Program-made: the position numbers and the translations under genes
Shown here: positions 6,614-58,977 of the stretch, piece by piece
How positions within the stretch are numbered: position 1 is the stretch's first letter
Layout of the letters: the number at the start of each line of letters is the position of its first letter
DNA from: Clostridiales bacterium
GTDB lineage: Bacteria > Bacillota > Desulfotomaculia > Desulfotomaculales > VENG01
Direction: 5' to 3'
Length of the DNA: 64,000 nucleotides
Assembly (NCBI GenBank): GCA_021736985.1
Contig: JAIPEW010000008.1
Span: forward strand, 27,893-91,892
Notes under the pieces: model-generated
What the model was told of the DNA's origin: nothing
What the model saw: the letters and a program-made list of their open reading frames with translations, nothing else
Databases searched by the model: none

Positions 6614-6930
6614 ATTTTGAACGAGCTCAAAAAAAAGAAGTCGTTTTTTTACCAGTAAATAAGTTGCAAGAGTTGAATGTTATAAGCATCTTATCCTTAG
6701 CATAGTGTTCAAAAAATATAGATAGGATTTAGTTTGCAAGATGGAAACAATAGCTGGCAATATATGATTATAATATTTTGTAATTTTAATTTATCTTACA
6801 GCCCGCTTTCTCAAACAGAGAGAAATACATTCCACAGATGCTAAAGACTCAGACGTATTTATCCTTGTTATCAGAGTAAGAATATATTTTATAAGTTAGA
6901 GGGCAAGGAACCTGTTAAATGTAAAAGGAA

Positions 6931-7731
6931 GTGAAAAACGTGGAATGGGCACAACCTGATAAGTTATATGCGATTTTTAGGTGTACTAATGCTAAGCATG
7001 CAGATGATTTGGTAAATAAAGGGACTATAATGTTTAATAATGCTCGAGCATGGGCTGATATAGAGAAAAAAAAAGGAAAAGGTCAGGGAGATTTATACGA
7101 AGGGGTGTTTGCAGCTTGTCACCCTTCAGACGTGGATTCAGTGACTTTTTACAATAAAAAATATAATGATGTTGAATGTGTGTCTAATGGGAAATTATTA
7201 TATTTTAGGCGTAAAAGTGTAATGCAAATGCCGGCTTTTTGTTTCTTTTTATTAAAGCAAAGTCTTTTTGATTGTAGTGGAAAAGAGGGGAAACACACTC
7301 TTTCAACTTATATACCAGGAACATTTTTTCAGGAGTTTGCAGATGGACTATCGGCAGATGAAGAAAAGCAGCCCTCCTTAGTTTTAATACATGACATGGA
7401 GGAGTTTGTAAAAATGATAAAGAGAAAACTTATATCCATGGGAGTTAATGAGTCGGATGTATTAGTTCGATGTGTTCAATATTTGAATAAACATATTCCT
7501 TTTTACAATTCAGCAGGGTCTCCAGAAGAATTGTTTCTCAAAGATAAATCATTTTCATATCAAGCTGAGGGTAGAATTTTAGTTAATACTACCAACAAAT
7601 TATTGATAGATAAGCTGGTGCGGAACCCTATAAATATAGGACCAATTAAGGAGTTTTCTGAACAAAGCAATACAGATTGTGATCAAGGAATATTTGTTAA
7701 GATGACAGCAGATGTACATGCTGTAGATTAA
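6931..7731 (+). CDS. Hypothetical protein, DUF2971-like features
   Basis: Single 266-aa ORF; GTIMFNNARAWAD...GQGDLYEGVFA resembles DUF2971-type proteins, otherwise unassigned. Confidence 0.6.
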   Translation: MKNVEWAQPDKLYAIFRCTNAKHADDLVNKGTIMFNNARAWADIEKKKGKGQGDLYEGVFAACHPSDVDSVTFYNKKYNDVECVSNGKLLYFRRKSVMQMPAFCFFLLKQSLFDCSGKEGKHTLSTYIPGTFFQEFADGLSADEEKQPSLVLIHDMEEFVKMIKRKLISMGVNESDVLVRCVQYLNKHIPFYNSAGSPEELFLKDKSFSYQAEGRILVNTTNKLLIDKLVRNPINIGPIKEFSEQSNTDCDQGIFVKMTADVHAVD

Positions 7732-19782: not shown

Positions 19783-20589
19783 ATGCGTCCTTTATGGAAA
19801 GGTGCTGTAAGTTTGGGCCTTATTTATGTTCCGGTAAAAATGTATGCTGCCACTGAAAGAAAGGATATACGGTTTAATTACCTTCATGAAAAGTGTAAAA
19901 ATCCTGTTAAATCTAAAAAATATTGTCCTTATTGTGATGAAGAAGTAGCTCCGGATGAAATAGTTAAGGGATACCAGTACGAAAAAGGGAAATATGTAGT
20001 TATAAGAGATGAGGATTTTGAAAATATTCCCGGAGAAACAACTAAGAGTATAGATATTATGGATTTTGTAGATATTTCTCAGATAGACCCGGTGTATTAT
20101 GACAAGCCTTATTTTTTAGTTCCCGGGGAAGGTGGAGAAAAAGTTTATGAACTTCTAAAAAGATCTATGAATGATACGAAAAAAGTGGCAGTAGCACGGG
20201 TTATTATACGCAGTAAGGAGTCTCTTGCGTCTATCAGAGTAGTAGACAATGTAGTGTTGATGAGTACTATGCATTATCCGGATGAAGTGAGAGACAGCAG
20301 TCAGTTAGAAGAGTTAAAGTATAATGTAAATATTCATAATAACGAATTAAAGATGGCGGTAAATTTAATCGAAAGCCTTTCTGGTGATTTTGAACCCTCC
20401 AAGTATAATAATGAGTATAGAAAGTCTTTAATGGAGATGATCCAGGCAAAAATTGCAGGAGAAGAAGTAGAGGAACCGGCACAGGCAGAAACTGAAAAAG
20501 TTGTAGATCTAATGTCAGCTTTAAAGGCAAGTATTGATAAAGTAAATGAAGAAAATAAAGGCGGGGAAGAATTAATTGAGTCGAAATAA
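19783..20589 (+). CDS. ku: Non-homologous end-joining protein Ku
   Basis: MRPLWKGAVSLGLIYVPVKMYAATERKDIRFNYLH is the bacterial Ku N-terminus. Confidence 0.96.
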   Translation: MRPLWKGAVSLGLIYVPVKMYAATERKDIRFNYLHEKCKNPVKSKKYCPYCDEEVAPDEIVKGYQYEKGKYVVIRDEDFENIPGETTKSIDIMDFVDISQIDPVYYDKPYFLVPGEGGEKVYELLKRSMNDTKKVAVARVIIRSKESLASIRVVDNVVLMSTMHYPDEVRDSSQLEELKYNVNIHNNELKMAVNLIESLSGDFEPSKYNNEYRKSLMEMIQAKIAGEEVEEPAQAETEKVVDLMSALKASIDKVNEENKGGEELIESK

Positions 20590-21531
20590 TATTCCCTTTT
20601 TAAAACCAATGCTTGCTGTAGATTCTAACCCTTTTAATAGTGAAAATTATTTGTTTGAAATAAAATGGGACGGTTACCGCTGTCTTTTCTATTTTGAGGG
20701 AAAAATAAAATTAATATCCCGGAACGGTAATAATTTAACCGATACTTTTCCTGAATTCTGTACAGTTAATTTTTTTGAAAATATTAAGCCGTGTTTATTT
20801 GATGGGGAAATCATTGTTTTAAATAATGGTTTACCTTCATTTAATAATTTACAACAGCGCGGGAGATTAAAAGATAAAATTAAAGTTAAAAGTGCAGCAG
20901 TTAAGTATCCTGCTGTTTTTGTTGTTTTTGATATTTTATATATTAATGGCCGGGAAATTATGAAATTGCCATTATTAAAAAGAAAAAAATATTATCTAGC
21001 AACATTAAAACTTCAGATCATTTGTTGTTATCTGAGTATGTCTTAAATAATGGTAAGGATTTTTTTGATGCTAGCGCTGGTATGGATTTGGAAGGTGTTA
21101 TGGCAAAAGAGGTTAACAGTGTATATTTGCCTGGAAAACGTTCTGCTCACTGGAAAAAAATAAGAAATATAAAGGAAGCAGACCTGGTTATTTGCGGGTA
21201 CCAGCCCGGTAAAAGAGGTAATATTCTTGGGGCCCTGGTGCTCGGCGGTTATAGGGGAGAGATGCTGGTTTACCAGGGAAAAGTCGGTACGGGGTTTTCA
21301 GAAAAAGAAAAAGAGTTATTATTAAGTAAATTGAATCCTATAAGAGATGTTAATACTGAATTATATGCACTAAACATTGATTGGAAAAATATATACCGGG
21401 TAAAGCCCCTTTTAGTATGTATAGTTAAATACTCATCTTTAACAGAAGCGGGTTTGTTAAGGCATCCGGTATATAAGGGGCTGCGTCATGATAAAAGTCC
21501 AGGAGATTGTAAAACTGTGAATACGTGTTAG
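20576..21531 (+). CDS. ligD: ATP-dependent DNA ligase (LigD ligase domain), split by a frame change near 20983-20989
   Basis: KPMLAV...FEIKWDGYR ligase motif I in the first ORF; LEGVMAKEVNSVYLPGKRS.HWKKIR in the second; continuity restored by -1 shift at A AAA AAA. Confidence 0.85.
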
Positions 21532-21579
21532 TTAGTTTTAATGCAAAATAAAAATTTAGGAACCGAGAGGCGTTTCTGT

Positions 21580-22512
21580 ATGAATGATAAAACTATAAAA
21601 GTAGATGATAAAAAAATACGGCTTACTAACCTGGATAAGGTATTCTGGCCGGGACAAGAGTTTAAAAAAGTGCATTTAATTAAATATTATTCTGAAATGG
21701 CCCCGTATGTCTTGCCATATATAAAAAATCGTCCCCTGGTGATGAAAAGATACCCAAATGGAATTAATGCAGAGTCTTTTTATCAGAAAGAATGCCCGGA
21801 TTATGCTCCTGATTGGTTAGAAACATTCCCCGTAAAGCATACTCGGAAAATTATAAATTATATTATTTGTAATGATACAGCTGCTTTAGTATGGATTTGC
21901 AACCAGGGGTGTATTGAAGTACATGCATGGCTAAGTACCTTAAAAAATGTATATAACCCTGATATAGCCGTAATGGATCTTGATCCTGCCGAAGGTACCA
22001 GCTTTAATATGGTTGTTGAAACTGCACTGTTAATCAAAGAAATATTAACTTATTTTGATTTGAATTCTTATATCAAAACATCTGGTTCTACTGGAATGCA
22101 TGTTTTTATTCCAATGCTGCCGCGTTATACCTTTAAAGAAGTTACCCTGTGCATGAAGTTTGCAGCAGAATTAGCTGTAAATGCTCAGCCGCAAAAGAAT
22201 ACTATAGAGAGGAAAATACAAAAACGCTATGGTAAGGTATACATAGATTATCTGCAGAATGCAAAGGGAAAAACTATGGCTTATCCGTACAGCCTGCGTC
22301 CTTTACCGGGTGCGCCTGTATCTGCACCGCTGGACTGGAAAGAAGTATCTAAAATAACATCTTCTACTTGTTATAATATGTATAACATTAAAACAAAAAT
22401 TGCTGAAAAAAGTGAGTTGCCCTGGTTGAACATGTGGCAGAACGAGCAGTCTATAGACAAATTATTTAATGCTTTTTCCAGGAAAAAAAGTACGGTGAAT
22501 ATAAGACAATAA
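21580..22512 (+). CDS. LigD-type polymerase/primase domain protein
   Basis: LTNLDKVFWPGQ.. IKYY..MAPYVLPYIKNRPLVMKRYPNG; VMDLDPAEG; SGSTGMHVFIPM. Confidence 0.93.
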   Translation: MNDKTIKVDDKKIRLTNLDKVFWPGQEFKKVHLIKYYSEMAPYVLPYIKNRPLVMKRYPNGINAESFYQKECPDYAPDWLETFPVKHTRKIINYIICNDTAALVWICNQGCIEVHAWLSTLKNVYNPDIAVMDLDPAEGTSFNMVVETALLIKEILTYFDLNSYIKTSGSTGMHVFIPMLPRYTFKEVTLCMKFAAELAVNAQPQKNTIERKIQKRYGKVYIDYLQNAKGKTMAYPYSLRPLPGAPVSAPLDWKEVSKITSSTCYNMYNIKTKIAEKSELPWLNMWQNEQSIDKLFNAFSRKKSTVNIRQ

Positions 22513-58320: not shown

Positions 58321-58977
58321 ATGAGCAGGAAGGACAGGAAAGAACTTATACGTCAGATTGAAGAATTAAGAGGTTCACGCCTGATTTGTTATATTACAGG
58401 AGATCGGGAAAACTTAAAAACTAGAATAGCCCCGGATGTAAACCATGTTTTTTACCGGCACTTGGAAATGATATCTAAAAAAATGCCAGTAGATTTATTT
58501 TTATATACACGGGGTGGTGATATATTAACACCATGGCGACTTGTATGTTTAATCAGGGAATATACACCTGATTTTAATGTTTTAGTACCTTTTCGTTCGT
58601 ACAGCGCAGGTACTTTAATATGCTTGGGGGCAAGTAATATTATAATGGGAAAATGGGGTGAACTTGGTCCTATTGACCCGAGTGTTGATAATCCTTTTAA
58701 TCCCGAAGATCCTAATGATAAATCAGCAAAAATTTCAATAGACATAGAGAATGTTTATTCTTTTATTTCACTTGTTACTCAAAAAGCTGGTATAGTGAAC
58801 CAGGTAGAGTTGTCGAAGATAATACGTATGCTCGCTGAAAAAATACATCCACTGGCACTAGGAAATGTCTACCGTTACCATCTTTTAACTTTCCATCCGG
58901 GAAGTCCCCTTCCTGAGCGAAGCGAAGGGAGGGATAGTGTGTGCAGAAACAGGATTTTCCTGACGGGCACAGAGTAA
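58321..58977 (+). CDS. Clp-fold serine protease, SDH family, with apparently aberrant C-terminus
   Basis: LFLYTRGGDILTPWRLV...VPFRSYSAGTLICLGASNIIMGKWGELGPIDPS; sequence changes character after LALGNVYRYHLL. Confidence 0.7.
   Translation: MSRKDRKELIRQIEELRGSRLICYITGDRENLKTRIAPDVNHVFYRHLEMISKKMPVDLFLYTRGGDILTPWRLVCLIREYTPDFNVLVPFRSYSAGTLICLGASNIIMGKWGELGPIDPSVDNPFNPEDPNDKSAKISIDIENVYSFISLVTQKAGIVNQVELSKIIRMLAEKIHPLALGNVYRYHLLTFHPGSPLPERSEGRDSVCRNRIFLTGTE

What the first reader, a model, noticed from the sequence alone, without database searches (positions are those of the whole stretch)
20960..21060. LigD ligase split at an exact A AAA AAA slippery heptamer
The ligase is split between ORF 20576-21046 and ORF 21022-21531. 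Zero-frame codons at 20981 read AGA AAA AAA TAT. A -1 slip on A83-A89 gives ...LLKRKKILSSNIKTSDHLLLSEYVLNNGKDFFDASAGMDLEGVMAKE, an uninterrupted ligase sequence, so the break falls exactly at the A7 tract in X XXY YYZ register. It could be programmed -1 frameshifting or polymerase slippage producing full-length and truncated ligase, or a plain indel. I saw no obvious strong downstream stimulatory structure.
Basis: partly seen in the sequence, partly recalled or inferred. Interest (0 to 1): 0.72.

Follow-up and report, generated by a model that had tools for sequence, protein, structure and literature searches.

The report
Ordinary one-base frameshift in ligase gene
A DNA-repair ligase gene in a Desulfotomaculum-like bacterium is split by what is most likely an ordinary one-base frameshift at a run of A's; related bacteria have intact copies without that run, and the run is far too common in this genome to be a special frameshift signal.

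Summary
The ATP-dependent ligase of a Ku-ligase-polymerase operon is split, and the frame changes by -1 at A7 (20983-20989), read AGA AAA AAA TAT. Programmed recoding is not supported:

(1) 34 of 60 order relatives hold a close orthologue and none is split by a frameshift. The relatives read at DNA level lack the A7; the sister genome reads AGG AAA GAA ATA.
(2) In-register A_AAA_AAA is commonplace here: 107 copies in 92 of 304 sampled genes, against 114 +/- 9 expected. Avoidance of A-runs begins only at A9.
(3) I found no Shine-Dalgarno-like stimulator, no downstream structure beyond shuffles, and no start signal for the second half.
(4) The truncated product lacks the conserved LEGVMAKE region and the C-terminal domain.
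(5) Other genes here are privately damaged: a TrkA-type channel gene with a one-base frameshift away from any homopolymer, and a ClpP-like protease gene missing its middle.

All 36 near-invariant positions after the break are kept, so the break is recent or a sequence error; reads are needed to tell which. My estimates: real mutation 0.55, sequence error 0.38, recoding of any kind 0.06.

The parts
19783..20589 (+). Ku, intact, first gene of the NHEJ operon
   Evidence: PF02735 and TIGR02772 full length; 75% identical to sister genome
20576..21046 (+). 5' part of the ATP-dependent NHEJ ligase (adenylation domain up to about residue 138, then out-of-frame residues to the stop)
   Evidence: PF01068 2-141, TIGR02779 2-125
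20983..20989 (+). A7 run, in A_AAA_AAA register, where the -1 frame change is best placed
20990..21531 (+). 3' part of the ligase in the -1 frame (ORF listed from TTG 21022), including LEGVMAKE and the C-terminal domain; no Shine-Dalgarno before 21022
21541..22512 (+). Stand-alone LigD-type primase-polymerase, intact
   Evidence: PF21686 2-252 of 254, TIGR02778

Best explanation
The ligase gene of a normal Ku-ligase-polymerase operon carries a private one-nucleotide frameshift in a run of A's, a very common kind of indel. It is either a recent real mutation, by replication slippage (about 0.55), or a one-base error of the draft sequence (about 0.38). No recoding is needed. If the sequence is right, translation ends at 21046 and yields a fragment without the later ligase motifs and C-terminal domain, so end joining through this ligase is lost while Ku and the polymerase remain. 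Shown: the split, its frame and place, intact relatives, lack of tract conservation, ordinary frequency of the heptamer. Inferred: recency, loss of function, origin of the indel.
For: 34 order relatives have a close orthologue with no frameshift. The closest relative reads AGG AAA GAA ATA, and about 30 other order-level loci read at DNA level have no A7 there. In-register A_AAA_AAA: 107 in 92 of 304 genes, expected 113.7 +/- 9.1. No stimulators. Only 1 of 71 syntenic genes is split by a frameshift, but other private damage exists: a TrkA-type channel gene and an SDH_protease gene at 58321-58977. All 36 near-invariant columns after the break are kept, as expected of a recent or unreal break. 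Frameshift singletons validated by homology are classed in the literature as sequencing errors or recent indels (PMC3711429).
Against: Downstream conservation is also what recoding would give, and this is the only ligase of its Pfam family in the genome. The break does sit at a homopolymer in slippery register. Nothing here separates mutation from sequence error.
Confidence: 0.93

Rival explanations
1. Sequence error: the gene is intact in the organism and the 65-contig draft miscounts the A-run. This is one of the two versions of the best explanation, listed apart because its consequence differs; its probability is included in the 0.93 above.
For: No decay specific to the part after the break: 36 of 36 near-invariant columns kept, and branch excess over the sister smaller after the break (1.4x) than before it (2.2x). 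Ku and polymerase intact. Homopolymers are a common place for such errors (general knowledge).
Against: The rest of the contig is clean: 70 other syntenic genes without a frameshift, many with A6-A8 runs. The other one-base frameshift found is not at a homopolymer.
Confidence: 0.38
2. Programmed or adventitious -1 ribosomal frameshifting on A_AAA_AAA makes full-length and truncated ligase.
For: Exact heptamer register and an open -1 frame giving an uninterrupted ligase; the downstream part is conserved.
Against: Site absent in relatives. No Shine-Dalgarno-like word upstream; downstream folds have z from -1.0 to +0.5. E. coli heptamers without stimulator gave at most about 10x a 0.055% background (PMC4066793). 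The same heptamer sits in 92 of 304 genes without avoidance. The truncated product lacks essential ligase parts.
Confidence: 0.04
3. RNA polymerase slippage on the A-run yields a mixed mRNA population and rescues some full-length ligase.
For: Precedent: the A11 tract of Citrobacter rodentium tssM1 (PMC4256274).
Against: The tract is 7. E. coli RNA polymerase showed no detectable slippage below eight A's (PMC6260861). In this genome avoidance of A-runs appears only at 9 or more (A9 4 vs 14.1, A10 0 vs 3.4; A7 and A8 not avoided).
Confidence: 0.02
4. Phase variation of the A-run, or a two-piece ligase with a separately translated second half.
For: A homopolymer lies at the break, and the second ORF is long and conserved.
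Against: The run is short, of ordinary length and not conserved. The second ORF has no Shine-Dalgarno before TTG 21022, and the cut lies inside the adenylation domain.
Confidence: 0.01

Closest known systems
Homology-validated singleton frameshifts (recent indel or sequencing error), as classed in PMC3711429
   Same: One genome only, intact homologues elsewhere, both halves match one Pfam family
   Different: Nothing of note; it happens to fall on an A7
Programmed -1 frameshifting on A_AAA_AAR heptamers (dnaX, IS elements)
   Same: Heptamer sequence and register
   Different: No stimulators, no conservation, truncated product not a plausible functional protein, heptamer commonplace in this genome
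Transcriptional slippage rescue (Citrobacter rodentium tssM1, PMC4256274)
   Same: Frame change at a run of A's
   Different: 7 rather than 11 A's, below the E. coli threshold and the avoidance threshold measured here
Nonconventional NHEJ with ligase and polymerase as separate proteins (PMC7719229)
   Same: Ku, ligase and polymerase as adjacent separate genes, as in the sister and most order relatives examined
   Different: Here the ligase gene is additionally broken

Membership tests
Programmed -1 ribosomal frameshifting | Slippery heptamer in X_XXY_YYZ register at the frame change | tested here: met
   A_AAA_AAA at 20983-20989; best junction there by 1-5 bits
Programmed -1 ribosomal frameshifting | Site and split conserved among homologues | tested here: not met
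   Close orthologues of 34 order relatives without frameshift; no A7 in those read at DNA level
Programmed -1 ribosomal frameshifting | Stimulator: upstream Shine-Dalgarno-like word or downstream structure | tested here: not met
   None in the 30 nt upstream; folds no better than shuffles
Programmed -1 ribosomal frameshifting | Measured frame change, functional products | not testable with these tools
   Needs a reporter or proteomics
Transcriptional slippage site | Tract long enough for RNA polymerase to slip | tested here: not met
   A7; avoidance in this genome begins at A9; E. coli shows none below A8 (PMC6260861)
Singleton frameshift (indel mutation or sequence error) | Both halves match one family; homologues intact; split seen in one genome only | tested here: met
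Singleton frameshift (indel mutation or sequence error) | Tract length in raw reads | not testable with these tools
   No reads held; no second isolate of the species held
NHEJ ATP-dependent ligase (TIGR02779) | Adenylation and C-terminal domains with conserved residues, beside Ku and polymerase | tested here: met
   71 of 73 near-invariant columns kept across the two frames. In one continuous frame: not met

The most novel reading that the evidence does not exclude
Low-level ribosomal or transcriptional slippage on the A7 rescues a recently broken NHEJ ligase, the only one of its family in the genome, so that some full-length enzyme is still made and the downstream part stays under selection.
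Probability: 0.06. Interest if true: 0.35.

Novelty: already known. Interest (0 to 1): 0.07.

Why it matters
It matters little by itself. It is a useful caution: in this AT-rich genome almost a third of sampled genes carry an in-register A_AAA_AAA, so a frameshift that lands on one is weak evidence of recoding. If the break is real, the strain is a natural case of an NHEJ operon that has recently lost its ligase.

Tried and rejected
Programmed frameshifting: site not conserved, no stimulators, heptamer commonplace. Transcriptional slippage: tract too short. Separately translated second half: no start signal. A second ATP-dependent ligase of the family: none; the NAD-dependent ligase LigA is present. 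A generally poor assembly: the contig is otherwise clean of frameshifts. Dating by relaxed selection: the ligase branch is 1.8x that of the sister, but the excess is not confined to the part after the break and Ku shows 1.6x, so it dates nothing. Literature: the search made found no report of recoding in ligD. Rfam on the window: no match. The whole genome was not available as a file, so a 405-kb sample was used; the frameshift scan of that sample is incomplete, and only selected pairs were checked with Pfam. No congener or second isolate is held, so dN/dS across the break could not be done.

Full report
The observation. The window lies in contig C28 of a 2.84-Mb, 65-contig draft genome. Relatives found by the ligase include Pelotomaculum, Desulforadius and Desulfotomaculum records. 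ORFs 20576-21046 and 21022-21531 cover consecutive parts of one NHEJ ATP-dependent ligase, and the A7 at 20983-20989 is read AGA AAA AAA TAT in the zero frame. A profile of relatives scores best when the frame changes inside the A7, but junctions from about 20963 to 21005 score only 1-5 bits lower. The gene sits between an intact Ku gene and an intact stand-alone LigD-type polymerase gene. The sister genome and most of the order relatives examined have the same three genes together. NHEJ with these domains on separate proteins is over-represented in Firmicutes (PMC7719229).

Relatives. Of 60 relatives searched, 47 have a match, of which 34 are close orthologues (E of 1e-80 or lower); the rest are weaker, probably other ligases. 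None of the close orthologues is split by a frameshift. One is listed with a TAA; the fetched record of the same contig (L035) matches through query residue 312, so I infer that this is its normal end. The closest relative held, G001, is only about 57% identical in this protein. It reads AGG AAA GAA ATA at the corresponding place, and the other order-level loci read there (about 30, some of them duplicates) have at most A6. Some distant bacteria have A6-A8 there in intact frames, because the protein often reads RKK at this point.

How special is the heptamer? In a 405-kb sample of the genome, 304 predicted genes contain 107 in-register A_AAA_AAA heptamers in 92 genes; shuffling synonymous codons within genes gives 113.7 +/- 9.1. 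It is neither rare nor avoided. Runs of 9 and 10 A's are avoided (4 against 14.1 expected, 0 against 3.4), while runs of 7 and 8 are not. This agrees with the survey in PMC1088944, where selection against slippage usually becomes evident at nine. E. coli RNA polymerase showed no detectable slippage on fewer than eight A's (PMC6260861). E. coli heptamers without a stimulator gave at most about ten times a background of 0.055% (PMC4066793). Here there is no Shine-Dalgarno-like word upstream, and the downstream RNA folds no better than shuffles.

Is the break isolated? On C28, 71 genes have an orthologue on the syntenic contig of G001 and only the ligase is split by a frameshift. A ClpP-like SDH-type protease gene at 58321-58977 has lost its middle: the sister protein has 353 residues, whereas here about 195 conserved residues are followed by unrelated sequence and then, in another frame, by the conserved last 25 or so. 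Elsewhere in the sample, a TrkA-type potassium channel gene (L139, G000:C17:6969-7315) is split by a one-base shift that is not at a homopolymer. The genome, or its assembly, thus has a low background of privately damaged genes, and the ligase is one of them.

How old is the break? Across both frames 71 of 73 near-invariant columns are kept, including all 36 after the break. The ligase branch is longer than the sister's (0.77 against 0.43), but the excess is larger before the break (2.2x) than after it (1.4x), and Ku shows 1.6x. There is no decay specific to the downstream part: the break is recent, or it is not real. The genome has no other ligase of this family; the NAD-dependent LigA is present.

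Mechanism. The most likely account is a plain one-nucleotide indel in an A-run, by replication slippage if real. The resulting fragment would lack the LEGVMAKE region and the C-terminal domain, and from established knowledge of ATP-dependent ligases it should not seal nicks (not tested here). A sequence error explains the data nearly as well. Recoding is not excluded, but nothing observed requires it, and every recoding feature tested beyond the heptamer is absent. The literature treats such singletons the same way: sequencing error or recent indel (PMC3711429).

Verdict. Ordinary. Finding the heptamer in register within a given gene is expected for roughly one gene in three in this genome.

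Noticed in passing
window 58321-58977 (+): ClpP-like SDH-type protease gene (PF01972) lacking its middle relative to the sister genome, with the conserved C-terminal residues downstream in another frame. A GC-rich stretch at the scar contains a 16-mer with four copies in the whole genome, all on one strand of their contigs, perhaps a small dispersed repeat.
   Followed up: partly
L139 (G000:C17) 6651-7591, minus strand: TrkA-type potassium channel gene split by a one-base frameshift that is not at a homopolymer.
   Followed up: partly
405-kb sample of G000, including the window: Runs of 9 or more A's are depleted in coding sequence against synonymous shuffles, while runs of 6-8 are not, which suggests a slippage threshold near nine in this organism.
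   Followed up: yes
L054, Chryseosolibacter indicus ligase: An intact ligase in a distant phylum has a longer A-run at the corresponding codons, so this RKK site gathers A-runs by convergence.
   Followed up: no
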